Shown piece by piece: positions 9,802 through 61,298 of a stretch of 61,298 bases of DNA. Every line of letters begins with the position of its first letter. Within the stretch, counting starts at the first letter, position 1. The position numbers and the translations under genes are program-made. Source of the DNA: a virus; the IMG/VR virus record IMGVR_UViG_3300047408_000236, positions 1 through 61,298 of that record, one strand, 5' to 3'. Under the pieces are notes generated by a model that was not told the origin of the DNA, made no database searches, and saw only the letters and a program-made list of their open reading frames with translations.

Positions 9802-9831
9802 CCCGTCCGCCTGGAGGTGGGACCGACAACC

Positions 9832-13681: not shown

Positions 13682-13709
13682 CTTTTATTCGCCGGCGCGA
13701 GCAATCTCC

Positions 13710-13743: not shown

Positions 13744-13747
13744 CCCC

Positions 13748-14575: not shown

Positions 14576-14582
14576 ACGAATC

Positions 14583-15908: not shown

Positions 15909-15911
15909 TCG

Positions 15912-45892: not shown

Positions 45893-47550
45893 TGATGAGC
45901 ATTAGCCACAGCAGCATCCCCGCTGCCGCGAACACGGCCACCCACCATCCCAGGAACGCTACCGCTCCAACCAGAAGCCCGATCTTCGCTAGTCGCATTG
46001 CCCACGCCATGACGGACCTCCCTCGGGTCAGTGGTTATTTTCTGATGCTCTTCCTTTGACGCCTGAATGTCAACTGGTACGACCATGCCGCTCACGTCCA
46101 GTAGTGCCTGGCCGCGAGCTGCGCTGCGCAGGAACCGGCGCGCCTCATCGCTCAGTCGGACCTTCTCGGCCAGCAAGTCGCCGTCTGGCCCGTTTTGCTT
46201 CAGATACACCTTGATGGCCGAGTTGTTCAGGACAGCGAGCCCCTGGTCGCTCGTCAACAATTCCTGTACCTGCTGCGATGCTATCCAGAGACTCAGATAG
46301 TGGTGGCGTCCGATGCGCGCTATTTCCTCGATGAGACTGGCCAGGGCTGGATCACGCAGGAGTGACCACAGCTCGTCAAGAATAAGAAGTCGTGGCCGAG
46401 GATCACGCTTTGCCGTGTCCCACAACTCGGACACAAACGCTCGCAAGCGGTCTGCACGTTCGCTATAGGGTACGTCTGCCAGGTTGAAGGTTTGGGCGTG
46501 GGCGACACCGGCGTATTCCGCGGGACTTCGTTGCTCAACAATCAGCACCTCTACATCTTTGAGCCGGCCAGCCAGTAGCTTGAGAAAGTAACTCTTCCCG
46601 GCGCCGACCTTGGCCAGCACAATGCCGCCGAAGCTTTCTAGACTCGGGTCGAACGGATCGAGCCGGACCTCCATTGAGCCAGTATGCGTCGTACCCAGCG
46701 GCGCGCCATTCGTGTGGCGCACCGTGGCTGGTTGGAACGGCCATGTTGACGCAACCGAAGTACAGTCGAGCGTGTGCCATGCACCGAGCAGACGACATAC
46801 GCCTGTGGCGCTAGTAGCCTCAAGGCCACGATCGTGCTCCCATGTGGCGGGCCGGACATCCCCGAGTGCTAGCCCGATCTCGTGTTGCAACGTCGCTACT
46901 CGGCTCATCAGTAGCGTGCGCTCGTGAGCTCGTACGGTGAACGCAATCGCCACTTTTACTGGCCGATCCTTGTGCGCGATCAGGTCTTCGCGGACCCGGC
47001 GCGAGTCGCGTGTGGTGAGCATGTCGCCCGCATCATTCGAGTCCTGATGCCGTTTCTGTTGGAGTTTGAGCTTACGCGCGATCCAGGCCGAGTCTTGCGC
47101 CTCGATGTGAATGCCGACGTCAACCGGTAAGTCACCGGCGAGCGCATTGCCGAGCCAGCCTGGCGCTACCTCCCGCGGCCAGCGGCGCAGGACGAGTGAC
47201 GCGCAGTAGTCATCGCCCGCAAATACACAGTCGGACCAGGTGAGTGTTGCTGGTTCGATATCCGCGGTGGCGATATAGCATCGAAGCCCTACCCCTTCGA
47301 GTGTGCGCGCGAGTGTACGGGTGCGCCACCCACTCTCGTCATCATCAAGGACTGCCAGCCAACGACGCTCAAGCTGTGGTGGCTGAGGCCACGTCGGATG
47401 TGTCTCGATGGTCCTTGCCTGTCCGATGAGCTGGATCGGATGGCTCAGGCCCATGAGTGCGCGTGCGAACGCTTCCATTTGATCGGACCTGGCGCTCTGC
47501 GACTCGAGCGCGTAGTTTGTCGTTGGTTGCAACGCGAGTACGCTGCGCAT
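45889..47550 (-). CDS. VirB4/TraC-like secretion ATPase
   Basis: A 553-residue ATPase. Walker A KVGAGKS (314-320), Walker B LLILDELWSL (388-397) and SLWIASQQVQELL afterwards are the VirB4 pattern. The N-terminal part (SVLALQPTTNYALESQ) also fits but begins about 20-30 residues late, so the true start is doubtful. The stop of the PrgI-like gene sits in the same frame directly before its ATG. VirB4 powers assembly of type IV systems. Confidence 0.8.
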   Translation of the reverse strand: MRSVLALQPTTNYALESQSARSDQMEAFARALMGLSHPIQLIGQARTIETHPTWPQPPQLERRWLAVLDDDESGWRTRTLARTLEGVGLRCYIATADIEPATLTWSDCVFAGDDYCASLVLRRWPREVAPGWLGNALAGDLPVDVGIHIEAQDSAWIARKLKLQQKRHQDSNDAGDMLTTRDSRRVREDLIAHKDRPVKVAIAFTVRAHERTLLMSRVATLQHEIGLALGDVRPATWEHDRGLEATSATGVCRLLGAWHTLDCTSVASTWPFQPATVRHTNGAPLGTTHTGSMEVRLDPFDPSLESFGGIVLAKVGAGKSYFLKLLAGRLKDVEVLIVEQRSPAEYAGVAHAQTFNLADVPYSERADRLRAFVSELWDTAKRDPRPRLLILDELWSLLRDPALASLIEEIARIGRHHYLSLWIASQQVQELLTSDQGLAVLNNSAIKVYLKQNGPDGDLLAEKVRLSDEARRFLRSAARGQALLDVSGMVVPVDIQASKEEHQKITTDPREVRHGVGNATSEDRASGWSGSVPGMVGGRVRGSGDAAVANAHQ

Positions 47551-47671
47551 TCAGGGCTTGCTCCAGAAGTGCCGAAGCCTGCTGCTCCAGTGAACGCCAC
47601 TCGCGCGCGGCAATCTCGGACAACGTGTCAGTGTCCGTACCATCACGGACCGTAACCTTGAGTTCTGCCAT
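47369..47671 (-). CDS. overlapping frame, possible small protein or VirB4 N-terminus
   Basis: A 100-residue reverse frame whose first ~60 residues (LKVTVRDGTDTDTLSEIAA, REWRSLEQQASALLEQAL) look like normal helical protein, while the last 40 are low-complexity and overlap the real VirB4 frame. It may be a separate small gene, or hold the missing VirB4 N-terminus joined by a frameshift. Confidence 0.35.
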   Translation of the reverse strand: MAELKVTVRDGTDTDTLSEIAAREWRSLEQQASALLEQALNAQRTRVATNDKLRARVAERQVRSNGSVRTRTHGPEPSDPAHRTGKDHRDTSDVASATTA

Positions 47672-47991
47672 TGCTCCCGCCATCGTGGCCAGATGACCAC
47701 GTGAAAGTAGTGCCCAGCGGCTGCTAGCCACTCGTGTATGCGGCGCATGCCGAGCTTGCTGCGTAACCCGCTAGCGATCGCACCAACGCCTGACACGTCG
47801 CACGCCGGCTCACCGGTCAGGGTCCACGCGCCAACGCATAGCACGATGGGTACGGCCCACCACCACGAGTAACCGTTGTTGATCAGGTACCAGATGCTCG
47901 CTACCCCGAGCGCGAGCATCACGAAGTCCCAGAACGGGGTACGCCGGTCCAGTTCGGTCGGAACAATGATGACTGGTGAGCGTTCGTCCAC
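47551..47991 (-). CDS. PrgI/VirB3-like membrane protein
   Basis: A 146-residue protein with two membrane helices (FVMLALGVASIWYLI and WWAVPIVLCVGAWTL) and a cytoplasmic C-terminus. The place directly upstream of VirB4 and the two-helix form fit PrgI/VirB3 partners of T4SS. Its last ~40 residues overlap another plausible frame. GTG start directly after the pilin stop. Confidence 0.65.
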   Translation of the reverse strand: MDERSPVIIVPTELDRRTPFWDFVMLALGVASIWYLINNGYSWWWAVPIVLCVGAWTLTGEPACDVSGVGAIASGLRSKLGMRRIHEWLAAAGHYFHVVIWPRWREQWQNSRLRSVMVRTLTRCPRLPRASGVHWSSRLRHFWSKP

Positions 47992-48216
47992 TCAGGCGTG
48001 TGGTGCCGCGCCGGTGACCAGTGCAGCGATAGTCTGCGCGCCGAGCACGATCGCGGCGCCAATCAAGCCGCCAGTGATCCAGTCTTTCGCTGCTTTCTTA
48101 TCGCCGATGAGCCACTGGTAGCCACCAACAGAGATGGCTAGTAGCAGGACGGCGGGCAGGATGAACTGCTGCGCGCTCGTCAATGCTGTTCGGATAGTTG
48201 CGCCGACTGTTTCCAC
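47992..48216 (-). CDS. VirB2/TrbC-like pilin or membrane subunit
   Basis: A 74-residue protein with two hydrophobic helices (FILPAVLLLAISVGGYQWL and GLIGAAIVLGAQTIAALV) joined by a polar loop (GDKKAAKD), the VirB2 pattern. GTG start with GGGAAGAG upstream. Lies between the NlpC and PrgI-like genes, as in Gram-positive T4SS operons. Confidence 0.7.
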   Translation of the reverse strand: METVGATIRTALTSAQQFILPAVLLLAISVGGYQWLIGDKKAAKDWITGGLIGAAIVLGAQTIAALVTGAAPHA

Positions 48217-48227
48217 TCTTCCCTCGT

Positions 48228-48329
48228 TTACTTGAGGAACGTGGCATGGGCAATCACGAGGATGCTCATGCCACAGGCGATGATCATGGAAAGCGCTAGT
48301 GTCCAGCCGATGAAGTACCTCCTAGCCAT
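48228..48329 (-). CDS. 33-residue membrane peptide in the T4SS operon
   Basis: Short frame with one membrane helix (TLALSMIIACGMSILVIAHA). It overlaps the end of the NlpC gene by 8 bases (ATGGCTAG), in keeping with the operon's coupling, and precedes the pilin. Too short to name. Confidence 0.5.
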   Translation of the reverse strand: MARRYFIGWTLALSMIIACGMSILVIAHATFLK

Positions 48330-48864
48330 GACGGACCCGGCCGAACCCGACGAGGTGTGCGCGCCAGAACGGGTCCGTATAGGACTGGCGGCCAACAACA
48401 GGCTCAATCGCGCTGACCATCCAACCCGGCGCGACGACTATCCCCACATGGGTTATTCGATCGGGGGAGCTGTAGGTTCGCTGGAAGAAGACCAGGTCGC
48501 CAACGTCGGGGGTAGTGACGAGCGGTACGTCGTTGTACTGAGTTTGTGCGGTACGCGGCAGTGAGTAGCCGAGTGTGCGGAACACCGCTACCGTGAGGCC
48601 CGAGCAGTCGATGCCGCGTCGGTCATTGCCACCGAAAACGTAGGGCACGCCCATGTATGGCTGAATAGCGGCCATAAGTGCTGATGTGTCGCTGAGTAGC
48701 GGTCCTGCTGGTGCGACTTGCGCGGGTGCGGGCACGGTGCCCGCTGGCTGCAGGTTCGAGCCGGCGAACCAAAACGTCGACCAGGCTTGTGAATGCAAGC
48801 CGACTGCTGGTGCGAGGATGAACATGGCGAACACGGCGAGGCCGACACCGATCCAGCGCATCAT
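48322..48864 (-). CDS. NlpC/P60 peptidoglycan hydrolase of the T4SS
   Basis: A 180-residue, membrane-anchored enzyme: N-terminal helix (IGVGLAVFAMFILAPAVG), Pro/Ala linker, and an NlpC/P60 domain with catalytic Cys87 (IDCSGLTVAVF), His139 (ITHVGIVV) and VGDLVFF. Such enzymes open peptidoglycan for monoderm type IV machines, like VirB1. ATG 48864 is chosen because it starts at the signal anchor and gives an ATGA overlap with the VirB6-like gene. Confidence 0.8.
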   Translation of the reverse strand: MMRWIGVGLAVFAMFILAPAVGLHSQAWSTFWFAGSNLQPAGTVPAPAQVAPAGPLLSDTSALMAAIQPYMGVPYVFGGNDRRGIDCSGLTVAVFRTLGYSLPRTAQTQYNDVPLVTTPDVGDLVFFQRTYSSPDRITHVGIVVAPGWMVSAIEPVVGRQSYTDPFWRAHLVGFGRVRHG

Positions 48865-49802
48865 GCGCGAAACAACAATCTCCGCAGGATCAGGAACTTG
48901 CCAATACCGCCACCACCTCCACCGCTGTGGTGGCTCGCACCGAACATGCTCGGCATCTTGCGCGCCAGCAGCAGCACCGCGATGCCGAGCACGGTGCCCA
49001 CAAAGCCTGTGCCAATCCCACCGAGCACCGGCGCCAGCCGAAGACAGATAACGATCGCGATCTGGCTGAACAGCGTGCCCGCAGCCAGCGAGGTGTAGCG
49101 GCTCGCCCACGAGTCGGTCTGCTCGAGCGACTTGGTCACGAGCGCGAGTGGGCCGACGATGATCAAAATGTCAATCAGCGCAAGCCTGAATACCACGGAG
49201 AACACCAGCATCAAGGCCACGACCGCATAGACGATCACGAGCACCGACGGCCCGAAGGCTTCGACGGGATTGCTCGTGAGTGTGGGTACTGTCATGTGTG
49301 GTCGGACGATGCTGGCCAGGGACGGCGCGGCAATGGCGGCACAGATGCCGTTGTTCAGGCTGATGCCGATCTCCCACCACATCAGGTTGAGCCCACTCAC
49401 GACCGCGCCATAGGCAAGGCGGCCGTAGGAGGCGCCCTGATGGAGCATGTGGCCGAACGCCGCGGCAACGACGAACAGGACGACCAATGACATTGCTACA
49501 GCAGTAGCGGTCGTGGCTAACGACCGGACGGTGTCATTACGGAACGTCCACTCGGGTGGGGTGGTCGTGAAAATGTCGGCCATGTTGATGGCATCGTTGG
49601 CCCACTGCACGAGCGTGGGTGCGACGAGCTGCACAACGATGGCATTCGAGCTCTCTACAGATGCATCGGCTATGGCTTCAGGGTCTGGCGGTGGCGCCTC
49701 GACGGTCACATGGTTCTGAATGACCTGGATTGGCTGAGGCTGCGGTTGTGGCAGGGGCGGGCCGATCTGCAGGAAGAGGACGGCGAGTATCGCCAGTATC
49801 AC
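48861..49802 (-). CDS. VirB6/TrbL-like polytopic membrane protein
   Basis: A 313-residue protein: signal-like N-terminus, Pro/Gln-rich segment, then about six membrane helices (for example VAMSLVVLFVVAAAFGHML and VLVIVYAVVALMLVFSVVF) and a Gly-rich C-terminal region. This is the TrbL/VirB6 shape; VirB6 lines the channel. First gene of the reverse operon, GTG start. Confidence 0.7.
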   Translation of the reverse strand: MILAILAVLFLQIGPPLPQPQPQPIQVIQNHVTVEAPPPDPEAIADASVESSNAIVVQLVAPTLVQWANDAINMADIFTTTPPEWTFRNDTVRSLATTATAVAMSLVVLFVVAAAFGHMLHQGASYGRLAYGAVVSGLNLMWWEIGISLNNGICAAIAAPSLASIVRPHMTVPTLTSNPVEAFGPSVLVIVYAVVALMLVFSVVFRLALIDILIIVGPLALVTKSLEQTDSWASRYTSLAAGTLFSQIAIVICLRLAPVLGGIGTGFVGTVLGIAVLLLARKMPSMFGASHHSGGGGGGIGKFLILRRLLFRA

Positions 49803-51166: not shown

Positions 51167-51799
51167 GTGCGCCCCTACTACGAGCAGGACGGAATCACGA
51201 TCTATCACGGCGACTGCCGCGAACTCGTGCCTAGCCTGGCGTTTGACGTAGTGATTACTGACCCGCCATACGGTAGCGCTGTTGCTTATGACATATATCC
51301 GGATACCCCCGCTAACTGGCAGTCGATCATGGCCTGGCTGCTCGCCTTGCCGCAGCCGATGGCATTCACGCTGAGCCACAGTCGGCTCTTTGATCTGGGT
51401 CGCAGACCCCAATGGGTTGGCTGCTGGGACAAAGTCAACACGGGCGGCATTGTTCATATCGGTGCCAGCCCTTCGTGGGAGCCGATCTGCTTCTACAACC
51501 TGCCTCGTGGTGATTCTGGCATCGCTAGATGGAATGACGTGTTCCGATATGCTGCCACTGGCTTCGCCAATGAGGTGCAAATCGGTCGCCCTCATCCGTG
51601 TACTAAGCCTGTACTCCTTTACCAGCGACTGATAGCAGTAATGCCCTCGGGCATCGTCCTCGATCCGATGATGGGCAGCGGCACCACGCTACGAGCAGCT
51701 AAGAACCTCGGGCACCGTGCGATCGGCATCGACGTGTCTGAGCGCTACTGCGATCTGGCTGCCCGGCGTCTCGCGCAAGGCGTCCTGTTCGCGACTTGA
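51167..51799 (+). CDS. DNA N4/N6 methyltransferase
   Basis: A 210-residue stand-alone methyltransferase: ITDPPYGSAVAY (motif IV, about residue 40) and LDPMMGSGTTLRAAKNLG (SAM motif, about residue 165), the beta-group order. It could protect the genome from restriction or be an orphan regulator. GTG start. Flanked by palindrome copies 3 and 4. Confidence 0.8.
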   Translation: MRPYYEQDGITIYHGDCRELVPSLAFDVVITDPPYGSAVAYDIYPDTPANWQSIMAWLLALPQPMAFTLSHSRLFDLGRRPQWVGCWDKVNTGGIVHIGASPSWEPICFYNLPRGDSGIARWNDVFRYAATGFANEVQIGRPHPCTKPVLLYQRLIAVMPSGIVLDPMMGSGTTLRAAKNLGHRAIGIDVSERYCDLAARRLAQGVLFAT

Positions 51800-51946: not shown

Positions 51947-52180
51947 GATGAGCCGTGGTGTGACAACGAGTGCCCAGCGCAGGCTCAGTTCGTCTGGTTT
52001 GGCCGCTACCTCTGCGAGCCGTGCGCCCACCGCGAGCACGCGCGCGGCGCCTTTCGCATGTGTCCCTGGCATGGGCGCTACTGCTCAGTCTGGCGTGGCG
52101 AGCACCGAGAAACTGACCACGAGCGCAGGAGCAAACCCCCCGAGGCAACGGCCCAGCCGCCGCTGTTTTGTCAGATCTAA
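51941..52180 (+). CDS. Cys/His-rich small protein
   Basis: A 79-residue protein with many possible zinc ligands (WCDNECPAQ, CEPCAHREH, MCPWHGRYC). ATG 51941 chosen by frame. Its stop TAA is inside palindrome copy 6. Unknown function. Confidence 0.5.
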   Translation: MSDEPWCDNECPAQAQFVWFGRYLCEPCAHREHARGAFRMCPWHGRYCSVWRGEHRETDHERRSKPPEATAQPPLFCQI

Positions 52181-52194
52181 CTGTCCTAAGTTCT
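52173..52194. repeat. palindromic element, copy 6, next to the integrase gene
   Basis: Half-sites AGATCTAA and TAAGTTCT around CTGTCC; extended by three bases each side it becomes GTCAGATCTAA ... TAAGTTCTGAC, an 11-6-11 arrangement. It lies between convergent genes, 8 bases from the integrase stop. Confidence 0.7.
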
Positions 52195-52202
52195 GACAAG
52201 AT

Positions 52203-53129
52203 TTAGAGGTTCCAGCGAGCCGACAGTGATGCGGTGTCGGCGATCTCGTTGACCGTGCGGTCACTCAGCGTAATGTAATCGCTTAAAACGTCCCGACTCA
52301 TCTGGCCGAGTCTCGAGCGGAGCTGGATCTCGGCGCCCGGTCGCTGCGCCAGGAACTCCGTCGCAGCAGAATGCCGCGTCCGATGCGGGTGAGCGTTCGG
52401 TACGCGAGCAGCCGTGCCCATCTCCGTGAAAATCTCGCGAACCCGGCGTGGCGAGAGCGGTAAGCGCTCACGTGTGGTGAATAGCGCATCGATGCCGGCG
52501 CGCGCCTCGCGCACCTTCAGCCAGTTTCGAAGCGCCGACAGGCTTGGGCCGCCATCACGCCGAGCCTGGACGCGAAAAATCACTTTGCGCGGATGGCCGT
52601 TCTTCGTGCGGCGAAACAGGATCGAGCCCTCGACCAGGTCGACGTCGGCGACGCTTGCGCTACAGAGCTCGCCCACGCGACAGCCGGTATCGAACAGCAT
52701 CAACAGCACCGCTCGATCGCGAATCGGATTGGCGCCACATGCCGCCGCTTGTACCAACCGGCGCGCTTCGTCTTCGGTGAACGGCTTGCGATGAATCTTC
52801 TGGACGCGTGGCACCTTGAGCCGAGCCAGCGGATCGAACGGGTAGACGTCGTTTTCCCACAGGAACCGCGCCCAGGTCTTGAGCGTGGTCACTCCCTGCT
52901 TTTCGGTGACCAGCCCACCACGGCGACCGTGGGACCGGCCGCGGAGCCAGGCCTGCCACTCGCGCACGAACTGCGGGTTGAGTGCGTCGAGCGTGGGCTC
53001 GACCTCGTGCTCGACCAGGAACGCCAGGAAACTGTCCTGGTAAATGCGGTACAGGCGCAGCGTCATCGGGCTGCGGTTCAATCGCTCCAAGCTACGCCGG
53101 TGAAACTCAGCGGCTTCGATGAGGTCCAC
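52203..53129 (-). CDS. tyrosine recombinase / integrase
   Basis: A 308-residue site-specific recombinase. The N-terminal SAM-like arm domain (TLRLYRIYQDSFLAFLVE) is followed by the catalytic set: R151 (GCRVGEL), H249-x-x-R252 (HRTRH) and Y285 (LSDYITLSD). The usual second His of the LGH motif is Gln (LGQM). GTG 53129 is chosen because GGAGGG lies 6 bases upstream; the frame runs back to TTG 53177. It should integrate the phage or resolve circles. Confidence 0.85.
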   Translation of the reverse strand: MDLIEAAEFHRRSLERLNRSPMTLRLYRIYQDSFLAFLVEHEVEPTLDALNPQFVREWQAWLRGRSHGRRGGLVTEKQGVTTLKTWARFLWENDVYPFDPLARLKVPRVQKIHRKPFTEDEARRLVQAAACGANPIRDRAVLLMLFDTGCRVGELCSASVADVDLVEGSILFRRTKNGHPRKVIFRVQARRDGGPSLSALRNWLKVREARAGIDALFTTRERLPLSPRRVREIFTEMGTAARVPNAHPHRTRHSAATEFLAQRPGAEIQLRSRLGQMSRDVLSDYITLSDRTVNEIADTASLSARWNL

Positions 53130-53163
53130 AGGAAGCCCTCCAGCACCCCTTTTGATCCCGCGT

Positions 53164-53192
53164 AATGTAGAACGCAAGTTCTAGGCTTTCAA
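53164..53192 (-). promoter_or_regulatory. integrase promoter with internal palindrome
   Basis: Reverse strand: TTGAAA (53192-53187), 17 bases, TACATT (53169-53164). TAGAAC-GCAA-GTTCTA (53168-53183) overlaps the spacer and the -10 edge, a likely operator. Expected start about 53157, giving a short leader with GGAGGG before GTG 53129. Confidence 0.55.
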
Positions 53193-53261
53193 GGGGCTGG
53201 GGTTGGTTAGACGGTGAACTGGTGCGATAACAACGGTTGGGCGGCCGGGCACGGGCGGCAG

Positions 53262-53795
53262 TTAGAGCGCGGCGGCGGCAGTTACGTTGAAACGGTGGCC
53301 ACCCAACGGCCGGCCAATCGGGAATTGACGTGGCCTTAACGTGCTACCCGAGTCGCCCCGCTTGGGGCGCGTACGAGTCTTTCGGCCACTAACGGCGGCA
53401 TTAACGGCGGCCTGGGCACCCTCATTAACGGCGGTCCCCACCTGGTGGATCAGGTCGACCACCGAATCGCCCTGGGCCTTTAATGCTTCCCAGAAGTAAT
53501 CTTCGTGTTCCGGCCCAACGGCCGCTAGCCAACGGTCGAGCTGATCGCGCACGAGCTGGCGGCGGGCGTCGATCTGCTCGTGGGAATCGCCCTTGCCGAT
53601 CACGCCGGCCAGTCCGGCCGGGGTCATATCAAAGGCAGCGGCGATATTCTCGAAGGTTTCCATCTCGACGTTGTCATCGCCGTTGATGATGGCGTACGCC
53701 TTGGATGCGCTGATGTTGGAACGTCTGGCGATCTCTCGGACAGACCAACCGCGACGCAGCCGCTCGGCCTCGAAAAAGTGTTGAAGCGCGGCCAC
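53262..53795 (-). CDS. XRE-family repressor candidate
   Basis: A 177-residue protein with an N-terminal helix-turn-helix (SVREIARRSNISASKAYAI, about residues 18-36) and a helical C-terminal part ending in a basic, Gly/Pro-rich tail. Divergent from the next operon over a shared operator region, it occupies the cI-like place. GTG 53795 coincides with the predicted transcript start, so it is probably leaderless. No peptidase domain. Confidence 0.75.
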   Translation of the reverse strand: MAALQHFFEAERLRRGWSVREIARRSNISASKAYAIINGDDNVEMETFENIAAAFDMTPAGLAGVIGKGDSHEQIDARRQLVRDQLDRWLAAVGPEHEDYFWEALKAQGDSVVDLIHQVGTAVNEGAQAAVNAAVSGRKTRTRPKRGDSGSTLRPRQFPIGRPLGGHRFNVTAAAAL

Positions 53796-53801
53796 GTTCC
53801 T

Positions 53802-53888
53802 ATCCTACGCGCATGTCCAGCATTCTGCAAGTATTGCCCACTAATCTAGGAACGGGTATTGCAGAATTCTGGACAGATGGTGTAGAGT
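53802..53888. promoter_or_regulatory. divergent promoters with paired operators (lysogeny switch)
   Basis: TTGCAG boxes at 53830-53825 (reverse) and 53859-53864 (forward) each start a 17-base near-palindrome (left 53814-53830, right 53859-53875) with core CAGAATTCTG. The -10s are TAGGAT (53807-53802, 17 bp spacing) and TAGAGT (53883-53888, 18 bp). Both transcripts should start at or beside the first codon (53795 and 53896). Confidence 0.7.
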
Positions 53889-53895
53889 AGAGGAC

Positions 53896-54189
53896 ATGAA
53901 CCGCACCGCCACCCGCACCGACAAGGTACGCGCCGCACTTCAGCAAAGCGGCCAGTGGCTCAAGGTCCGCGACCAGAACGGACGCGCCCTCGCTTACGGC
54001 GTGCCATCCGCGACCACCCCGCTGCTCTACCACTTCGCCAACTCGACTCAGTGCACGTGCCCCGCTGGCCAGCACGGCCAGCGCTGCTGGCATACCGCTG
54101 CTGTTGGCTTGCACGTCGCGGCCGTTCGCACCCAGCAGCGCACGGCGACTCTGGCTGCTGACTATGATCGGATCTTCGGCAAGCTGTGA
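53896..54189 (+). CDS. SWIM zinc-finger protein
   Basis: A 97-residue protein with QCTCPAGQHGQRCWH, a C-x-C...C-x-H SWIM finger (about residues 53-67), a fold used to bind nucleic acid or proteins. First gene right of the repressor, so probably early. ATG 53896 lies at the expected transcript start (leaderless). Confidence 0.7.
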   Translation: MNRTATRTDKVRAALQQSGQWLKVRDQNGRALAYGVPSATTPLLYHFANSTQCTCPAGQHGQRCWHTAAVGLHVAAVRTQQRTATLAADYDRIFGKL

Positions 54190-54196
54190 TTGCCGA

Positions 54197-54226
54197 TTGC
54201 ACTATTCTGAACACCATGCCTAGAAT
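54197..54226 (+). promoter_or_regulatory. third operator-promoter, before the Cro-like gene
   Basis: TTGCAC (54197-54202), 18 bases, TAGAAT (54221-54226). The box begins TTGCACTATTCTGAACA, matching the switch operator at 14 of 17 positions, so the same repressor probably binds here. Confidence 0.6.
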
Positions 54227-54239
54227 GGTGGACGTGCCG

Positions 54240-54491
54240 ATGAAGACCACTGCCGTGGAAGCCGCAGTCGCGCGTGGCTGGTCGAGAGGCGAGCTGGCGA
54301 AGCGCACCGGCCTGAGCCGCAGCACCATCCACAACCTGGAAACCGGCGAGTACGACACCATCAGCGGCAAAGCCATCAGCGCGATCATGCGCGCTTTCCC
54401 CGACTTGCCGTACGAGCGTCTCTTTGTTGTGACTTCCGATTCCAGTAAAAAGAACGTCTCGTCCAGTCCACAAGAACCCGTAGCCGCATAG
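54240..54491 (+). CDS. small HTH regulator, Cro-like
   Basis: An 83-residue protein with WSRGELAKRTGLSRSTIHNLE as helix-turn-helix and the usual FPDLPYERLF ending. It lies downstream of the switch with its own operator-promoter. Predicted transcript start is about 54233, so GTG 54234 or ATG 54240 is the start, not the longer frame from 54186. It probably opposes the repressor. Confidence 0.7.
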   Translation: MKTTAVEAAVARGWSRGELAKRTGLSRSTIHNLETGEYDTISGKAISAIMRAFPDLPYERLFVVTSDSSKKNVSSSPQEPVAA

Positions 54492-54500
54492 GCCGCGCTC

Positions 54501-54519
54501 GCCCGTCGCGCTGACGGGC
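54501..54519 (+). promoter_or_regulatory. hairpin between Cro-like gene and early operon
   Basis: GCCCGTC (54501-54507) pairs with GACGGGC (54513-54519); a second weaker GCCAC/GTGGC stem follows. No T-run, so an attenuator or processing site rather than a simple terminator. Confidence 0.35.
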
Positions 54520-54571
54520 AACAAGAAGCCACCCGCGTCAACGAGTGGCCTAGTCCCGAAAGGCACCTGAG

Positions 54572-54808
54572 ATGCCGAACGAAACCACCGCCATTCTAGA
54601 CCAGCCGCTGATGACGCCAGAGATTCAGCGTGCCAAGCAGCGCGATCAAGACATCGAACTGCTCAAGGCCGTCCGTCAGGCCACGCTGGATATTCGGGCC
54701 CAGTGCCACCGCTACGACACCTCGCTGGCATACGCGTTCGCCGAGCCGTTGCAAAAGGTAGAGGAAGCCCTGGCATGGCTGCTGTTGGCGAGGGAACTCG
54801 GGTCATGA
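54572..54808 (+). CDS. small helical early protein
   Basis: A 78-residue, mostly helical protein (IQRAKQRDQDIELLKAVRQ). It starts the early operon; an AAAGG lies before the ATG. Unknown family. Confidence 0.5.
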   Translation: MPNETTAILDQPLMTPEIQRAKQRDQDIELLKAVRQATLDIRAQCHRYDTSLAYAFAEPLQKVEEALAWLLLARELGS

Positions 54809-55029
54809 CCGACGCCAACGTCCTGAGCGTGACCGACTTGCAGCACCTGATGTGGTTTCGGCTGCGCATGGAAGCAAAAGAGCACCTCGCCTTGACGCAG
54901 CAAACCGTCACCGGTATGGAAGCGAAACGGCTCGCCTTCGCCAGTTATCTCGTCACCAGCCAACGCCTGACCGAGCACACCATCCGTCAGACCGCCCAAT
55001 CGTCGCAGGGGCCGTGGAGTTTCGCATGA
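54805..55029 (+). CDS. small early protein
   Basis: A 74-residue helical protein with ATGA overlap at both ends (previous stop, next start). Unknown family. Confidence 0.5.
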   Translation: MTDANVLSVTDLQHLMWFRLRMEAKEHLALTQQTVTGMEAKRLAFASYLVTSQRLTEHTIRQTAQSSQGPWSFA

Positions 55030-55571
55030 CTGATCTGCTCGTGGCGAGCAAGGACTTTATGCGCGCCAGCGACCGGCTCAGCACGCTCTGGCAATTGACC
55101 GAGGATTTCGAAGCGTTGGTAGCGCTGCTCGAGGATCCGGATGCCGATCCCGATGCCATCGATGCCGAGATGCAACGCGTGGCCGGCGACATCAAGACCA
55201 AGGCGTTCGGTGTGGCATCCGTCATCAATGCCCTCGAAGGGCTCGCAGCGTTCCAGAAGATGAACGCTGACCGACTGGCCGTCAAGGCTAAGGCCAACCA
55301 GGCGCACGCTGACCGACTGCGTTCGTACGCCCACGCGTGTATGCGCGCTATCGGTGTGGATCGACTCGAAACCGGGCAGTACACGTTGGCGATCAGGACC
55401 AATCCGCCGAGCGTGGTTGTGCAGGACGCCGCGGCCATACCGAACGAGTTCAACCGGACCAAGATCACGGTCGAACCGGACAAGACAGCGATAAAGGATC
55501 ACTGGAAGCAGACCGGCGAGCTGGTTCCGGGCGTTGACATCGTGCGTACGGAAAGCCTGCGAATTTCATGA
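55026..55571 (+). CDS. Siphovirus Gp157-like protein
   Basis: A 181-residue protein: N-terminal helix/coiled coil (LSTLWQLTEDFEALVALLED), DIKTKAFGVASVINAL, then the conserved IRTNPPSVVV...IPNEFNRTK end. This is the Gp157 family of siphovirus early regions, often beside SSB and recombination genes; its exact role is not settled. ATGA overlaps on both sides. Confidence 0.8.
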   Translation: MTDLLVASKDFMRASDRLSTLWQLTEDFEALVALLEDPDADPDAIDAEMQRVAGDIKTKAFGVASVINALEGLAAFQKMNADRLAVKAKANQAHADRLRSYAHACMRAIGVDRLETGQYTLAIRTNPPSVVVQDAAAIPNEFNRTKITVEPDKTAIKDHWKQTGELVPGVDIVRTESLRIS

Positions 55572-56116
55572 TCTGGCTTGCCCTTTATGTCGCGACGATT
55601 TTCGGAGCTAACTGGGCGATCACCACGTTCGGTCTGGTACCAGTTGGCTTCGGACTGATGGCACCAGCAGGCGTGTACTTCGCCGGGCTCGCATTCACTT
55701 TTCGCGATCTGACGCAGGACTCACTTGGCCGACGCTGGACCTTCGTTGCCATCCTACTGGGCGCGGGACTCTCCGGGTTCCTGAGTGGCCCGCTAGCGCT
55801 CGCGTCAGGCATTGCCTTCCTGGTGTCCGAGACATGCGACCTCGTCGTGTACACACCGCTGCGCGAGCGCCATTGGCTATCTGCTGTGGCGTTATCGAAC
55901 ACGGTCGGGCTGGTCGTCGACTCCGCTTTGTTCCTGATGCTCGCGTTCGGCTCGCTCGAGTTCCTCGCCGGGCAAATCGTCGGCAAGTTCGAGATGACCG
56001 TGCTCGCGGTCGTGCTGTTGTGGGGGTGGCGTCGCTTTGCTCTATCTCAGCGGAGTCATCAACCCACTGGTATCGCGCACGGCGCCGCCGTGGGTGGGCT
56101 GGATGTTGAGTCCTAA
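55568..56116 (+). CDS. VUT/YhhQ-family queuosine-precursor transporter
   Basis: A 182-residue membrane protein with about five or six helices. APAGVYFAGLAFTFRDLTQD, LASGIAFLVSETCDLVVYTPL and VVDSALFLMLAFGSL are VUT/YhhQ signatures; members import preQ0/preQ1. The next gene is DpdA-like, so imported 7-deazaguanine is probably put into phage DNA. Confidence 0.75.
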   Translation: MIWLALYVATIFGANWAITTFGLVPVGFGLMAPAGVYFAGLAFTFRDLTQDSLGRRWTFVAILLGAGLSGFLSGPLALASGIAFLVSETCDLVVYTPLRERHWLSAVALSNTVGLVVDSALFLMLAFGSLEFLAGQIVGKFEMTVLAVVLLWGWRRFALSQRSHQPTGIAHGAAVGGLDVES

Positions 56117-56636
56117 TATGGGCAACCGCATCCCGCTCGACGGGCGACCGGTTGCACTCGATAACGGGTGCTTCGGCGACCGGTTCTCCCCACGTCGTTG
56201 GCGCCGCTTCCTGCTCAAGCATTGGGCGGACCGCGACCGCGTGCTGTTCGTGGTTGTGCCCGATGTGGTGGGCGACGCTGACGCGACGCTCAAGCGCTGG
56301 CACGAGTACTCGGCTACAGCTCGCCGGTACGAGATGCCGTTGGCTTTCGCAGCACAGGACGGCCTCCGCGTAGATGCTATCGAATGGGACGAGTTCGATT
56401 GTCTGTTCATCGGTGGCAGTGATGCGTGGAAGTGGCCCGATGGTCATCTCACTCGCGACGTGCGCGCGATTGTCGATCAGGCAACACAGCGCGGTAAGTG
56501 GGTCCACGCTGGACGCGTCAACAGTGCCAAGCGCTTCGCGATGTGCTCAGACGCTGGGATCGATAGCGCAGACGGTACGTACCTTCGCCGTGCACCCGAT
56601 GTAAACCTGCCGCGTCTTATTGGATGGGTCGCATGA
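56037..56636 (+). CDS. dpdA: DpdA-like DNA 7-deazaguanine transglycosylase
   Basis: A 199-residue member of the tRNA-guanine transglycosylase-like DpdA group that swaps guanine for a 7-deazaguanine in DNA. Seen: ALDNGCFGDRFSPRRW (about residue 40), VVPDVVGDADATLKRW with the catalytic-type Asp, FAAQDG, CLFIGGSDAWKW, and AGRVNSAKRF...DSADGTYL. Shorter than bacterial DpdA but typical of phage forms. TTG start overlaps the transporter by 80 bases. Confidence 0.75.
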   Translation: MLYLSGVINPLVSRTAPPWVGWMLSPNMGNRIPLDGRPVALDNGCFGDRFSPRRWRRFLLKHWADRDRVLFVVVPDVVGDADATLKRWHEYSATARRYEMPLAFAAQDGLRVDAIEWDEFDCLFIGGSDAWKWPDGHLTRDVRAIVDQATQRGKWVHAGRVNSAKRFAMCSDAGIDSADGTYLRRAPDVNLPRLIGWVA

Positions 56637-57028
56637 CCACCGCACTGACCGGCGCCACCTTGCTCGTGCATCTCATCGTTAGCGGCGAGCCGATCCCCAA
56701 GGCGCGACCTCGCTTAGCCCCAAGGGGCCACACGTACACGCCGCGCCGGACCGTGGAACAGGAAGCCAAGGTGCTGGCCTACCTGAAGGTCCAGTACCCG
56801 CGTCTGGTGCCCGTTGAGGGCGCGCTCAGCGTGTCCACGGATTTCTACCTGAGTACCACGCGCACGGTGGACCTCGACAATTTGCAGAAACTGATCTGGG
56901 ATGCGCTCCAAGGGGTGGTGTTCCGGAACGACTCGCAGATTGTGGAGTCGTACGCGCGCAAGCATCTGAGCGGTATCCCTCGTACCGAGATCAGCGTTCA
57001 CGTGCTCGGCGGGAATGGAGCTGCATGA
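56633..57028 (+). CDS. RusA-like Holliday junction resolvase
   Basis: A 131-residue RusA nuclease: SGEPIPKARPRLAP near the start, and DLDNLQKLIWDALQGVVFRNDSQI (from about residue 81), with the acidic catalytic residues of the family. It resolves branched DNA before packaging. ATGA overlaps on both sides. Confidence 0.85.
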   Translation: MTTALTGATLLVHLIVSGEPIPKARPRLAPRGHTYTPRRTVEQEAKVLAYLKVQYPRLVPVEGALSVSTDFYLSTTRTVDLDNLQKLIWDALQGVVFRNDSQIVESYARKHLSGIPRTEISVHVLGGNGAA

Positions 57029-57387
57029 TGGCATTGAGTCGGCGCGAGGTGTGGTGCCTGACGTGTCTGCTCTGCGCTCTGCTCTGCGCCTTCACTTTGA
57101 TCTGGCTCGCCGCGCCGGCGCATGCCGAGGAAGAAGATGTACAGGTCTCGCCGTACTCCGCGCGTGCCGATTGCATCGTGTCGTACGAGTCGCACTGGAA
57201 TGCGTACGCGGTCAACCCGCGCAGTGGCGCCAGTGGACTCGGGCAGTTTCTTCGATCAACGTGGATGACCACACCGTACGCCGGACACTCGGTCTTCGAC
57301 GCATACGCCAATCATGCCGCGGTGTGCTGGATGCTGAGTGTCGGTCGCGCACGGGAGTTCGACGTTGTTCGGCTGGGGTGGTGCTAA
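57025..57387 (+). CDS. secreted lytic transglycosylase-like protein
   Basis: A 120-residue protein with a signal peptide (LLCALLCAFTLIWLAAPAHA) and a small SLT/RPF-like domain: VSYESHWNAYAVNPRSG with the likely catalytic Glu, then GLGQFLRSTW. It would cut peptidoglycan outside the membrane. It sits in the early operon, far from the lysis genes, so it may serve entry, the T4SS (VirB1-like) or the lysogen. Confidence 0.7.
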   Translation: MMALSRREVWCLTCLLCALLCAFTLIWLAAPAHAEEEDVQVSPYSARADCIVSYESHWNAYAVNPRSGASGLGQFLRSTWMTTPYAGHSVFDAYANHAAVCWMLSVGRAREFDVVRLGWC

Positions 57388-57554
57388 TGCCGCTATCCAA
57401 CCACCCGCGCAGTGGGCTGTATCTGGACCCGTGCGCGCCGCATATGCGCGTACGGCTGGGGATGCTGATAGCAGGGCTGGTCAGCCTGGTGTTGTGGTTC
57501 ATCCTGATCTTCGCGGCCGTGGCCGTGTACCGCTACCTGCGAGGCGAAGTCTGA
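57387..57554 (+). CDS. 55-residue membrane protein
   Basis: One strong membrane helix (MLIAGLVSLVLWFILIFAAVAVY). TAATG and TGATG couple it to both neighbours. Its place right after the secreted transglycosylase suggests a partner. Confidence 0.55.
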   Translation: MPLSNHPRSGLYLDPCAPHMRVRLGMLIAGLVSLVLWFILIFAAVAVYRYLRGEV

Positions 57555-57826
57555 TGGGGAGACGGTGCTCTACATCCGACTGCCATACGCGTGTCGGCCC
57601 GCCGCAGCACTTCTGTTTGCCGTGCCGATTGAGTATGGGCGAACTCCCGAAAATGCGCCTACGTCGGGCAAACCTAGCGGTCTATGCCGGCCAGCACCTA
57701 CTGACGTGCTCGAATGGCCACCCGCATATCGTGGGACTCGCTCAGATCAACGTCATCGCAGGTACACGCTGCCCGTGGTGTCCGGCACTTATCGGGGCTG
57801 CGACGCGGAATGGAGCTGCGGCATGA
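57554..57826 (+). CDS. zinc-finger protein
   Basis: A 90-residue protein with CSTSDCHTRVGP...HFCLPCRL and CSNGH...CPWCPA, probably two zinc sites. TGATG start. Unknown function. Confidence 0.55.
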   Translation: MGRRCSTSDCHTRVGPPQHFCLPCRLSMGELPKMRLRRANLAVYAGQHLLTCSNGHPHIVGLAQINVIAGTRCPWCPALIGAATRNGAAA

Positions 57827-57996
57827 GGGAGTGTGTGGAGTGCGGTCTGAGAAAGCCGCGCAGTGACTTTTATCGGTCCAACACCTTCTGGTATCGGCGC
57901 CGGTGTCGTGAATGCTTGCTGTCACACCGCAGGGAGATGGCCGCGCTCGCCCTGGCTCGATTCTGGGCCGACCAGGAACGACGGGCGGCAGCATGA
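57823..57996 (+). CDS. small zinc-finger protein
   Basis: A 57-residue protein with CVECGLRKPRSDFY...RRCREC, the common phage Cys4 finger also found at the start of the next gene. ATGA overlaps on both sides. Unknown function. Confidence 0.55.
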   Translation: MRECVECGLRKPRSDFYRSNTFWYRRRCRECLLSHRREMAALALARFWADQERRAAA

Positions 57997-58484
57997 GGCT
58001 CGCGGCTGAGCGCACAACATTGACATGTCGATCGTGCAACCAAAAGAAGCCTGTCGACTTGTTTCCACCAAAGCGCCGACGCTGTCGCGCATGCGCTGCA
58101 CAAGTCACAGCAGAATGGCGCCAGAAGCATCCGGAGCGTCACAAGGCTAACGTCGAACGGTGGCGCGTCAACAACCCGGAGCGACGACTTGAATTGCAAA
58201 GGAGGTGGTTGAAAAGTAATCGAAAGATTGCTACCGAGAATGGTCGACGATGGAAGCAATTGAACCCCGAACGCGCACACGTAATGGAGGTAGCGGCAAC
58301 ACGCGTCCGATCTGCAATCAGGAAGGGAGTACTAAGTCGTCCAGCATGCTGTGAGCAATGCGGTACGACAGGGGCAATTGAAGCCGCCCACTACGACTAC
58401 ACACGACCACTAGACGTCAGATGGTTATGCAGACGTTGCCATCGAGCATGGGATCAAGCAGAACCAAAGACAAGGAGTACATAA
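57993..58484 (+). CDS. HNH endonuclease with N-terminal zinc finger
   Basis: A 163-residue protein: CRSCNQKKPVDLF...RRCRAC, a basic helical middle (KHPERHKANVERWRVNNPERR), and an HNH-like end (CCEQCGTTGAIEAAHYDY, LCRRCHRAWD) with His and Cys4 structure. Base composition is visibly more A/T-rich than its neighbours, a hint of recent arrival, perhaps as a homing-type nuclease. Confidence 0.75.
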   Translation: MRLAAERTTLTCRSCNQKKPVDLFPPKRRRCRACAAQVTAEWRQKHPERHKANVERWRVNNPERRLELQRRWLKSNRKIATENGRRWKQLNPERAHVMEVAATRVRSAIRKGVLSRPACCEQCGTTGAIEAAHYDYTRPLDVRWLCRRCHRAWDQAEPKTRST

Positions 58485-58485
58485 G

Positions 58486-59043
58486 GTGTTTCAAGCTCCA
58501 GCCAAAGGCACAACGTATGTGGCACCTCTCGAGCCCATCGATCTGGATAGGCGTTACCTATTTAAGTTGATCCACCTCGAAGATCAGGGAGTTAGCAAGT
58601 TCGCCGACCCGGCCAAGAACGAAACCTTCCACAACATTCAGTGGACGTTCCACGTCGCCGACCAGGAAACCAAGGAGGTCGTGTTCAACATCGACAAGGA
58701 TCCGTGGGAGCACATCGAGTACACCACGTCCAAGACCGGCAAGAATCCGAAAAACGGCATGATCGCCAAGGCGCGATTGTGGATCGAAGCGCTGCTCGGC
58801 CACACGGTTGAGGACGAAGAGATCACCGCGGACCTCCCCAGCATGATCCTGAACAAGTACGGCTCCGGGTTCTTCGAGGAGAAGGAAGTCGAAGCCCAGG
58901 ACGGCTCGATGTACACCAAGCTCAAAATCCTGAAGCTGAGCCCGTACCGCGCCGGCGCCAAGGCCGAACCGAAACCCGAACCCAAGCCGGAACCGAAACC
59001 GGTTGCGGCGGCAGCAGCAGGCGATTCCTCGCTCCCTTTCTGA
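58486..59043 (+). CDS. SSB-like / DNA-binding replication protein
   Basis: A 185-residue protein: beta-rich body (NIQWTFHVADQETKEVVFNID), then a Lys/Glu/Pro repeat linker and a final GDSSLPF that mimics the acidic Phe-ended tail of SSB proteins. Position before the primase supports a role in replication. GTG start. Stop is shared with the next gene's CTG start. Confidence 0.6.
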   Translation: MFQAPAKGTTYVAPLEPIDLDRRYLFKLIHLEDQGVSKFADPAKNETFHNIQWTFHVADQETKEVVFNIDKDPWEHIEYTTSKTGKNPKNGMIAKARLWIEALLGHTVEDEEITADLPSMILNKYGSGFFEEKEVEAQDGSMYTKLKILKLSPYRAGAKAEPKPEPKPEPKPVAAAAAGDSSLPF

Positions 59044-59192
59044 CATGTCGCTCATGTGGTGCGTTGGTGGCTTGGGGCTTGACGGTCAACAACAAGCGCT
59101 GCCCATACGACGTGGTCGACGGCCAGATAACCGACGTGTCGCACTTCGCCACATGCCCGCAAGCATCCTCCTGGTCAAAGAGAGGTAAGTGA
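59040..59192 (+). CDS. 50-residue zinc protein with CTG start
   Basis: The frame beginning CTG 59040 (CTGA overlap with the SSB-like stop) encodes TCRSCGALVAWGLTVNNKRC and SHFATCPQASSW, the usual form of small phage zinc proteins, and ends in a GTGA overlap with the primase. Both ends fit the genome's coupling rule. The other forward frame here (59045-59188) has no such features. Confidence 0.6.
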   Translation: MTCRSCGALVAWGLTVNNKRCPYDVVDGQITDVSHFATCPQASSWSKRGK

Positions 59193-61213
59193 ACGTAGTG
59201 GCACCGGCAGAGCTCGCCAGGCGACCCCAGTGGGTGGCTTGGAAACTCGTACCGCGAGCTGGCGAGCCCAAGCCGACCAAGGTGCCGTTCGATGCACATA
59301 CCGGCCGCCACGCCTCGACAACGGACCCAACCACGTGGTCGTCCTTTGAAGAGGCCGCGGCCTTCTGTGCCGCACACGATTGGGCGTCTGGCGTCGGCTA
59401 CGTGCTGTCCGCCGACGACCCGTATACCGGCGTGGATCTCGACGGTTGTCGGGATCCACACTCCGGCCGCATCGAGCCGTGGGCCAAAGCCATCATCCGC
59501 CGGCTCAACTCGTACACCGAGATCAGCCCGTCTGGTACCGGCCTGCGAATCTTCATCCGCGGCGAGTTGCCGCCATACGGCCGACGTAAAGGCCACATCG
59601 AGATCTACTCGCATGCTCGCTTCCTGACCATCACCGGCGATCGCTACCTGGCTGCACCAGACAGCATTCAGGAACGCGCAGTCGAATTGCTCGAATGGCA
59701 CCACGAGGTCTTCGGCGACCCGCCAGGACCGCGCCAGAACGGCCACGCGCGCTCACCCGTCCAGCTCGCGGATGCCGATTTGTTGCTCAAGGCGCGTGAT
59801 GCTGCGAACGGACAGAAGTTCTGGGCGCTATGGAACGGCGACTACTCAGCCTACAACTCGCCGTCGGAGGCCGACGAAGCACTCGTTAGCCTCCTCGCCT
59901 TCTGGTGCGGGCCTGACCCGGGCAGAATCGATCAACTCTTCCGATCGAGCGGACTCATGCGCGACAAGTGGGATCGGCAGGACTATCGCGATCGCACTAT
60001 CAACACGGTACTCGACGGCAAGACCGAGTACTACCGCGGCAAAAGCGCTAGCCCAGCGCTCGTCGTGCCAGAGCATATCGACCCTGTGACCGGCGAGGTC
60101 ATCTACGAACGGCGATTCCGATTCCTGACCGCGGACGAGCTCAAACACCGCCCCGATCCCGAATTCATCATCGACCATATCCTGCAGAAAAATACTCTTG
60201 CATTGATCGTCGGCGCCCAGGAATCGTACAAAACCTTTCTCGGTCTAGACATGGCCATGGCCGTCTCTGACGGCGGTGAATGGCAGGATCGGCCCGTTCA
60301 GCAGGGTACCGTCGCGTACATCAGTGCCGAGGGCGGCTCGGGTATCAAACTGCGTATCGAAGCATGGGAAACCGAGCACGAGCAACGCGTCGACCATTGC
60401 TACTTCCTGGCCGACCAGGCACCGCAATTCCTCGACCGCGGCAAGGGTGGCGACGTCGAAGAACTGCTGCTATCGCTCGGCGATCTACCAGCTACACCAA
60501 CGCTCATCTTCGTCGACACACTGGCTCGAACCATGGTCGGCGGTGACGAGAACTCGGCTCAGGATATGGGCCTGTTCATTGCATCGGCCGAGCAGATCAG
60601 ACAGGCTACCGGCGCTACCGTGGTGATGATCCACCACAACAACAAGGAGGGCTCAGCTCGCGGTAGCACCGCGCTCCTGGGCGCCGTCCATACCATCATC
60701 GAATGTTCGCGCGAACAGGGCCGAGATAACGTCATCGTAAAATGCGGCAAACAGAAGGATACCGACCATTTTGACACGATGCTGCTCTCGAGCAGTGTCA
60801 TCCAATTGGAAGGCGAAGAACGAGCCTCGCTCGTTCTTCGCATGCGCCAACGCGCTAACCTGCTGTTCAATCCGATCAGTAACCAGGCGATCCTGGCATT
60901 GGACACACTGGCAGAACTTGATAACCCTGCCTTCGCCGAATGGCGGGATGCCACAAATATCTCTAAGTCGGGATTCCAGCGGGCAAGAGTCGACCTTCTA
61001 AAAGGAGGGTACGTGGACCATAACGCCGACCGATATAGCGTTTCTTCTCTAGGACATACGTTCAGGTCCAACAGGGTCCAGACAGGGTCCATGGACCCTA
61101 TGGACCTTAGGGTCCAAAAAGGCCCCGTAAGGGAGGGGCCTTTGGACCCAGCCATCCCCGATGGACCCACCCCTTCAGGGTCCAACCCAGATTTGGACCC
61201 ATTGCCGTGGTAG
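59189..61213 (+). CDS. primase-polymerase / RepA-like helicase
   Basis: A 674-residue replication protein. Residues 1-175 are a prim-pol domain (GVDLDG at 81-86, SPSGTGLRIFIRG, HIEIYSHARFLTITGD). A linker domain (about 195-280) is NrS-1-like. From 318 it has a RecA-like ATPase: GAQESYKT (342-349; SYK replaces the usual GxGK) and LIFVDTLART (439-448). The last ~60 residues encode a run of GGGTCCA-type repeats. The gene runs across the circular junction. Confidence 0.85.
   Translation: MNVVAPAELARRPQWVAWKLVPRAGEPKPTKVPFDAHTGRHASTTDPTTWSSFEEAAAFCAAHDWASGVGYVLSADDPYTGVDLDGCRDPHSGRIEPWAKAIIRRLNSYTEISPSGTGLRIFIRGELPPYGRRKGHIEIYSHARFLTITGDRYLAAPDSIQERAVELLEWHHEVFGDPPGPRQNGHARSPVQLADADLLLKARDAANGQKFWALWNGDYSAYNSPSEADEALVSLLAFWCGPDPGRIDQLFRSSGLMRDKWDRQDYRDRTINTVLDGKTEYYRGKSASPALVVPEHIDPVTGEVIYERRFRFLTADELKHRPDPEFIIDHILQKNTLALIVGAQESYKTFLGLDMAMAVSDGGEWQDRPVQQGTVAYISAEGGSGIKLRIEAWETEHEQRVDHCYFLADQAPQFLDRGKGGDVEELLLSLGDLPATPTLIFVDTLARTMVGGDENSAQDMGLFIASAEQIRQATGATVVMIHHNNKEGSARGSTALLGAVHTIIECSREQGRDNVIVKCGKQKDTDHFDTMLLSSSVIQLEGEERASLVLRMRQRANLLFNPISNQAILALDTLAELDNPAFAEWRDATNISKSGFQRARVDLLKGGYVDHNADRYSVSSLGHTFRSNRVQTGSMDPMDLRVQKGPVREGPLDPAIPDGPTPSGSNPDLDPLPW
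61064..61200. repeat. iteron-like cluster and cruciform, candidate replication origin
   Basis: Ten copies of GGGTCCA/TGGACCC (eight exact) in both orientations at about 61064, 61074, 61085, 61092, 61101, 61110, 61143, 61162, 61178 and 61194. GGGTCCATGGACCC (61085-61098) is a perfect palindrome. GGTCCAAAAAGGCCCC and GGGGCCTTTGGACC (61111-61148) form a large stem. All within the 3' end of the helicase gene. Confidence 0.7.
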
Positions 61214-61298
61214 ACGCTCCCTACCTGCCGTCCCACCTCAGCCCGTCGCAGCTCTCGTGTTATGCCATGTGCCCAGCCATCTATCACGAGCGATATGT
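61172..61298. repeat. terminal direct repeat, right copy
   Basis: Identical to 1-127. Contains the end of the primase/helicase gene and the beginning of the nuclease gene again. Treat as duplicate when circularising. Confidence 0.9.

What the first reader, a model, noticed from the sequence alone, without database searches (positions are those of the whole stretch)
55568..56636. Queuosine-precursor transporter next to DpdA: DNA modification by salvage
A VUT/YhhQ-like importer overlaps a DpdA-like transglycosylase. No folE, queD, queE or queC genes were seen, so the phage would scavenge preQ0/preQ1 from host or medium and insert it into its DNA, hiding guanine-containing sites from restriction.
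Basis: partly seen in the sequence, partly recalled or inferred. Interest (0 to 1): 0.7.

Follow-up and report, generated by a model that had tools for sequence, protein, structure and literature searches.

The report
Phage deazaguanine importer plus base-swapping enzyme
This phage carries two overlapping genes, a membrane importer for queuosine precursors and a compact base-swapping enzyme, that together most likely let it take a modified guanine from its surroundings and build it into its DNA as armour; comparison with about 200 related loci suggests that the importer stands in for the genes that make the precursor.

Summary
55568-56116(+) encodes a Vut_1 (PF02592) protein of the YhhQ/queuosine-precursor-transporter type. 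It overlaps by 80 nt 56037-56636(+), a 199-aa protein of phrog_15826 whose phage relatives are annotated 'DpdA-like'. Its AlphaFold model (pLDDT 95.9) matches tRNA-guanine transglycosylases first in the PDB. Asp42, Asp76, Gln107, Gly126-Gly127 and Asp179 are invariant in 68 sequences and follow the TGT active-site order. No folE, queC, queD or radical-SAM (queE) match was found in the record.

Four comparative tests support salvage. (1) 63 of 87 loci with this enzyme have the importer adjacent, on either side. (2) 77 of 80 importer loci have one of three DpdA-type families adjacent. (3) Importers 73-80% identical to this one pair with either the small enzyme or a PF23859 DpdA. (4) Among 50 records, 0 of 33 with the importer have QueC, against 8 of 17 without (Fisher p 4.5e-5).

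The idea is not new: Hutinet 2019 suggested uptake for DpdA-only phages but saw no correlation of YhhQ with any phage group. The tight linkage and mutual exclusion are the addition here. DNA as target, the exact base and restriction resistance remain inferred.

The parts
55568..56116 (+). VUT/YhhQ-like (QPTR, PF02592) membrane protein, predicted importer of a 7-deazaguanine base
   Evidence: Vut_1 37.4 bits over cut-off; phrog_4899; 33 of 33 phage relatives match TIGR00697 at E <= 1e-3
56037..56636 (+). compact DpdA-like (TGT-superfamily) transglycosylase, 199 aa, TTG start, phrog_15826
   Evidence: AlphaFold model; Foldseek; invariant residues; profile link to phrog_887
54852..55571 (+). Gp157-type gene (PF05565) upstream, its stop overlapping the importer's start (same operon; not claimed to be part of the mechanism)
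56624..57028 (+). RusA resolvase gene downstream, its start overlapping the enzyme's stop (same operon; not claimed to be part of the mechanism)

Best explanation
The two genes form a salvage cassette for 7-deazaguanine modification of the phage's own DNA. The VUT/YhhQ-like protein in the host membrane takes up a free 7-deazaguanine base, most likely preQ0 or preQ1. The compact DpdA-like enzyme then exchanges guanines in phage DNA for the imported base through a covalent Asp intermediate, so that restriction enzymes with G in their sites cut poorly. Import replaces the folE-queD-queE-queC synthesis that other phages carry next to the same enzyme. Shown here: genes, families, fold, invariant residues, linkage, and mutual exclusion with queC/queD. 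Inferred: what is imported, that DNA is the acceptor, and the protective effect. Likelihoods I assign: TGT-superfamily base exchange 0.92; importer supplies its base 0.85; DNA is the acceptor 0.75.
For: Confident model whose first 48 PDB hits are TGT. Invariant Asp-Asp-Gln-GlyGly-Asp in TGT order. Profile homology to phrog_887 queuine transglycosylases, E 3.8e-7 over 166 columns. Importer adjacent in 63 of 87 enzyme loci, in either order. DpdA-type gene adjacent in 77 of 80 importer loci, or 48 of 51 clusters at 90% identity. Importers 73-80% identical to this one paired with the small enzyme (L160, L161, L164) or with PF23859 DpdA (L162, L163). No QueC or QueD in 33 importer-positive records, QueC in 8 and QueD in 7 of 17 importer-negative ones. 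In most QueC-positive loci queC or queD touches the enzyme gene. DpdA makes CAjan DNA modified and restriction resistant (PMC6884629).
Against: No measurement of DNA, base or transport. Sequence profiles do not link the enzyme directly to cellular TGT or significantly to PF23859 DpdA, though PF23859 DpdA itself fails the TGT comparison too. VIA-align scores pyruvate kinase barrels as high as TGT. Nine importer-negative, QueC-negative records show that the enzyme can occur with neither source. L170 has importer and que genes together. Orion, a DpdA-only phage, had no modification (PMC6884629). In Sonali the que genes lie beside a second enzyme.
Confidence: 0.72

Rival explanations
1. The pair raises queuosine-type modification of host or phage tRNA during infection; the enzyme is a compact tRNA transglycosylase.
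For: The fold is that of tRNA-guanine transglycosylase, and YhhQ-type transporters normally feed tRNA queuosine (PMC5372724).
Against: PF01702 does not match. The 199-aa protein has three cysteines and no CXCXXC zinc motif of tRNA TGT (sequence; motif from general knowledge). The slot is shared with PF23859 DpdA.
Confidence: 0.08
2. The enzyme attaches a deazaguanine to a protein, or binds such a modified protein, as in type IV CBASS with Cap9/Cap10.
For: Cap10-CdnD (9ntn) ties with TGT in the structural list, and deazaguanine-protein conjugation exists (PMC13279940).
Against: Cap9 is a QueC-family protein and none is in the record; the families of the neighbours found are Gp157, RusA, HTH and a primase/helicase-like protein, with no nucleotidyltransferase seen among those tested; linkage is with DNA-type DpdA families.
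Confidence: 0.04
3. The enzyme works on DNA but the host supplies the base; the importer serves another purpose, such as general purine uptake or host queuosine supply.
For: Some genomes carrying the pair have their own QueC, and substrate differences within COG1738 are suspected (PMC5372724).
Against: Importer and que genes exclude each other in the sample, and importers sit beside DpdA-type genes almost always. Planomonospora and Microbacterium genomes with the pair have no QueC match.
Confidence: 0.1
4. The cassette is decaying or inactive in this phage.
For: Related phages lose it: Brusacoram and LOCV4 have a truncated importer and no enzyme match in the stretch read.
Against: Both frames are intact here, the invariant residues are present, the model is confident, and importers of other phages stay up to 80% identical.
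Confidence: 0.05

Closest known systems
Phage DNA modification by DpdA (Hutinet 2019, PMC6884629; 9g, CAjan, Rosebush)
   Same: TGT-superfamily enzyme with 7-deazaguanine supply genes; related slot next to queC/queD in other phages of the family
   Different: No synthesis genes; compact 199-aa subfamily (phrog_15826) outside PF23859 and PF01702; an importer takes the place of synthesis
DpdA-only phages, group 3 of Hutinet 2019 (Salmonella 7-11, Mycobacterium Orion)
   Same: DpdA-type enzyme without preQ0 genes; uptake was already suggested there
   Different: An importer is encoded beside the enzyme, with strong linkage and exclusion; that paper saw no correlation of YhhQ with any phage group
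YhhQ / QPTR / COG1738 (E. coli preQ0 transport, PMC5372724)
   Same: Same Pfam family PF02592, involved in preQ0 transport
   Different: 182 aa here, below the TIGR00697 and PRK11212 cut-offs; paired with a DpdA-type enzyme rather than with the tRNA pathway
VUT-DpdA pairs in Mycobacterium StevieRay, Arthrobacter Aoka, Rhodococcus ReqiPine5 phages
   Same: Same two families adjacent and in the same order
   Different: 42-48% identical; deposited without a named transporter; in Aoka one small gene lies between

Membership tests
DpdA, broad sense (phage TGT-superfamily DNA transglycosylase) | TGT-like barrel fold | tested here: met
   Model pLDDT 95.9; Foldseek first hits all TGT, best E 1.2e-5; phage queuine transglycosylases in BFVD
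DpdA, broad sense (phage TGT-superfamily DNA transglycosylase) | Catalytic aspartates in TGT order | tested here: met
   D42, D76, D179 invariant in 68 sequences; equivalence to TGT D102/D156/D280 rests on order, strand position and profile alignment to phrog_887, not on a superposition
DpdA, broad sense (phage TGT-superfamily DNA transglycosylase) | Coupled to a supply of 7-deazaguanine base | tested here: met
   Adjacent importer or queC/queD across the family, though not in every member
DpdA, broad sense (phage TGT-superfamily DNA transglycosylase) | Inserts a 7-deazaguanine into DNA | not testable with these tools
   Needs nucleoside mass spectrometry
PF23859 DpdA (Pfam family) | Match to the curated Pfam model | tested here: not met
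   No match for the window protein or for relatives tested, so it is not filed in this family
tRNA-guanine transglycosylase (PF01702) | Match to PF01702 and zinc-binding motif | tested here: not met
   No PF01702 match in the record; no CXCXXC motif in the sequence
QPTR/YhhQ queuosine-precursor transporter | Match to Pfam Vut_1 over its cut-off | tested here: met
   37.4 against 27.2 bits
QPTR/YhhQ queuosine-precursor transporter | Match to the NCBI equivalog model over its cut-off | tested here: not met
   TIGR00697 28.4 against 50.95 bits; PRK11212 24.3 against 252. It is therefore a family-level (PF02592) member, not a called equivalog
QPTR/YhhQ queuosine-precursor transporter | Transports preQ0/preQ1 | not testable with these tools
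   Needs a transport or feeding assay
QPTR/YhhQ queuosine-precursor transporter | Six membrane spans | tested here: inconclusive
Cap9/Cap10 protein deazaguanylation (type IV CBASS) | QueC-family (Cap9) partner | tested here: not met
   No PF06508 match in the record

The most novel reading that the evidence does not exclude
A class of phage DNA hypermodification that depends on uptake from the surroundings: a mobile importer-plus-DpdA cassette in which the importer replaces preQ0 synthesis and DpdA enzymes of at least three families are exchanged, so that a phage's armour depends on what neighbouring microbes or the medium supply.
Probability: 0.6. Interest if true: 0.7.

Novelty: new variant of a known kind. 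Interest (0 to 1): 0.55.

Why it matters
The largest group of DpdA phages in the 2019 survey had no synthesis genes and a modification state that could not be predicted (PMC6884629). If import feeds the enzyme, the modification, and with it restriction resistance, would depend on precursor in the medium, and a phage grown without precursor would look unmodified for that reason alone. Resistance to restriction would then be partly a matter of community nutrition. It can be tested with StevieRay-type phages, which carry the intact cassette and grow on Mycobacterium smegmatis, a genus reported there to have none of the queuosine genes.

Tried and rejected
Direct sequence link of the enzyme to cellular TGT: not significant; the same comparison also fails for PF23859 DpdA, so it carries little weight against. 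A first importer-centred count used an iterated PF23859-type profile that drifted onto overlapping frames; it was discarded and redone with clean profiles. A viral scan with the single window protein found nothing. Protein deazaguanylation was considered and given low weight. No other multi-pass membrane gene was seen near the enzyme in importer-negative loci by crude hydropathy. The 2024 review of 7-deazaguanines is not held, and a search for later DpdA subfamily work found none in the library, so novelty was judged without them. The window's stretch 52000-61298 has no near DNA match among phage records.

Full report
What is there. The window is a 61,298-base virus record of a tailed phage with an integrase: terminase, portal, capsid, tail, integrase and repressor-like genes were identified. 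At 55568-56116(+) lies a 182-aa membrane protein of Pfam Vut_1, and at 56037-56636(+) a 199-aa protein of phrog_15826. The two overlap by 80 nt. Upstream Gp157 overlaps the importer and downstream RusA overlaps the enzyme, so the four genes read as one operon in the replication region.

The enzyme. Relatives in Mycobacterium, Arthrobacter and Rhodococcus phages are 42-45% identical and several are deposited as 'DpdA-like tRNA-guanine transglycosylase'. Pfam and NCBIfam are silent. With 68 sequences AlphaFold gives pLDDT 95.9 and pTM 0.92. Foldseek's first 48 PDB hits are all TGT. VIA-align gives Z 15.0 over 192 residues to TGT with preQ1, but pyruvate kinase barrels score as high, so that list alone shows only the barrel. 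The residues invariant in the family (D42, D76, Q107, G126-G127, H157, D179) lie at or just after barrel strands and follow the order Asp-Asp-Gln-GlyGly-Asp of the TGT active site; the TGT residues are from general knowledge. A profile comparison links the family to phrog_887, the phage queuine-tRNA-ribosyltransferase family, at E 3.8e-7 over 166 columns.

The importer. Vut_1 is the Pfam family of E. coli YhhQ, which is involved in preQ0 transport (PMC5372724). All 33 phage relatives scanned match the queuosine-precursor-transporter model TIGR00697 with E at most 1e-3, although the window protein is below that model's curated cut-off.

Linkage, seen from the enzyme. Of 87 loci with the enzyme (80 from IMG/VR, six phage records, the window itself; Sonali and ReqiPine5 occur twice), 63 have the importer next to it, upstream in most and downstream in about ten. 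In bacterial genomes it is adjacent in 11 of 51.

Linkage, seen from the importer. Of 80 importer loci from IMG/VR, 77 have a DpdA-type gene next to it: 23 of this family, 11 of the PF23859 type, 43 of the phrog_887 type. Of the other three, L168 has a 295-aa DSGAF-motif protein overlapping the importer, L170 has the importer between queC and queD-queE with a DpdA-like frame further on, and L184 has nothing recognisable within 3 kb. That is 48 of 51 clusters at 90% identity. Pfam confirmed PF23859 for five of these partners and for phiLM21 p025. Importers 73-80% identical to the window's are paired with the small enzyme in L160, L161 and L164 and with PF23859 DpdA in L162 and L163: the enzyme in the slot is exchangeable with a recognised DpdA.

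Mutual exclusion. In 50 records (the window and 49 others of at least 20 kb), 33 have the importer and none of those has QueC or QueD; 17 lack it, of which 8 have QueC and 7 QueD. Fisher p is 4.5e-5 for QueC, 3.5e-4 and 0.007 after collapsing enzymes at 70% and 60% identity, and not significant at 50%, where only 11 clusters remain. The eight QueC-positive records lie in separate places on the enzyme tree, and for most of them the nearest enzyme relatives carry the importer. Independent pairs on well-supported branches are too few for a test (4 pairs). In the QueC-positive loci queC or queD usually touches the enzyme gene, where the importer sits elsewhere. Sonali is an exception: its que genes are 3 kb away beside a second, phrog_887-type enzyme.

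Meaning. The simplest account is that the enzyme needs a 7-deazaguanine base, and that phages obtain it either by making it or by importing it. The phage in the window imports. That DNA is the acceptor follows from the DpdA literature, where deletion of dpdA in CAjan removed dPreQ0 and restriction resistance (PMC6884629), from exchange with PF23859 enzymes, and from the lack of tRNA-TGT features. It has not been shown for phrog_15826.

What is known already. Hutinet and colleagues proposed that DpdA-only phages could use host or exogenous precursors, noted YhhQ homologues in some phages and saw no correlation with any group; Orion, DpdA-only, was unmodified (PMC6884629). GATOR-GC found YhhQ in about 9% of bacterial dpd islands and suggested salvage (PMC11888242). 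So the idea is known, while the tight pairing, the partner exchange and the exclusion with queC/queD I did not find reported in the papers I could read; the main recent review was not available.

Limits. The samples are the best-scoring relatives, not a random draw; contigs may be fragments; copies of one phage occur. Nine importer-negative, QueC-negative records and a clade of actinobacterial chromosomal copies have no visible precursor source. The host is not known; portal matches are stronger in Chloroflexota (best 181 bits) than in Actinomycetota (best 58 bits) in samples of about 400 genomes each, so whether the host makes preQ0 cannot be said.

Noticed in passing
window 44288-49802 (-): A block on the minus strand looks conjugation-like: an AAA ATPase resembling VirB4 by eye, a weak TrbL match, an NlpC/P60 protein and a large ATPase without Pfam match. 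Unusual inside a phage record.
   Followed up: no
window 1916-3163 (+) and 51167-51796 (+): Two DNA methyltransferase genes, one fused to a ParB-like domain and one N6/N4 type, suggest further layers of DNA modification.
   Followed up: no
window 5043-22536 (+): Sugar-nucleotide epimerase, glycosyltransferase and two aminotransferase genes lie among the head genes, as if the virion or host surface were glycosylated.
   Followed up: no
window 9817-11328 and 42576-44204: Host hint: portal matches are stronger in Chloroflexota than in Actinomycetota samples, and the 42576 protein has long Pro-Thr-Ala repeats of a kind I associate with Chloroflexota.
   Followed up: partly
L170 2273-4700: An importer sits between queC and queD-queE in a 100-kb viral contig, the one case seen with both import and synthesis.
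   Followed up: partly
L096, L098, L100, L102-L106, L110, L114, L116-L119, L122, L124, L126: A clade of actinobacterial chromosomal copies of the small enzyme (Nonomuraea, Nocardia and others) has no importer next to it, and the genomes searched have no strong QueC match; their base supply, if any, is unexplained.
   Followed up: no
L075 4848-6698 and L079 4848-6086: Two related contigs have the enzyme with a long C-terminal extension (617 and at least 413 aa).
   Followed up: no
L157 2471-2734, L159 1971-2291: Fishburnevirus phages Brusacoram and LOCV4 have a truncated importer and no enzyme match in the stretch read, while StevieRay has both: a natural comparison pair.
   Followed up: partly
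L005 4652-5569, L007 5136-6179: PAPS-reductase-like genes lie near the small enzyme in ReqiPine5 and R6L; possible accessory role unknown.
   Followed up: no
window 31864-33684 (+): A 607-aa protein with RCC1 repeats near the tail genes.
   Followed up: no
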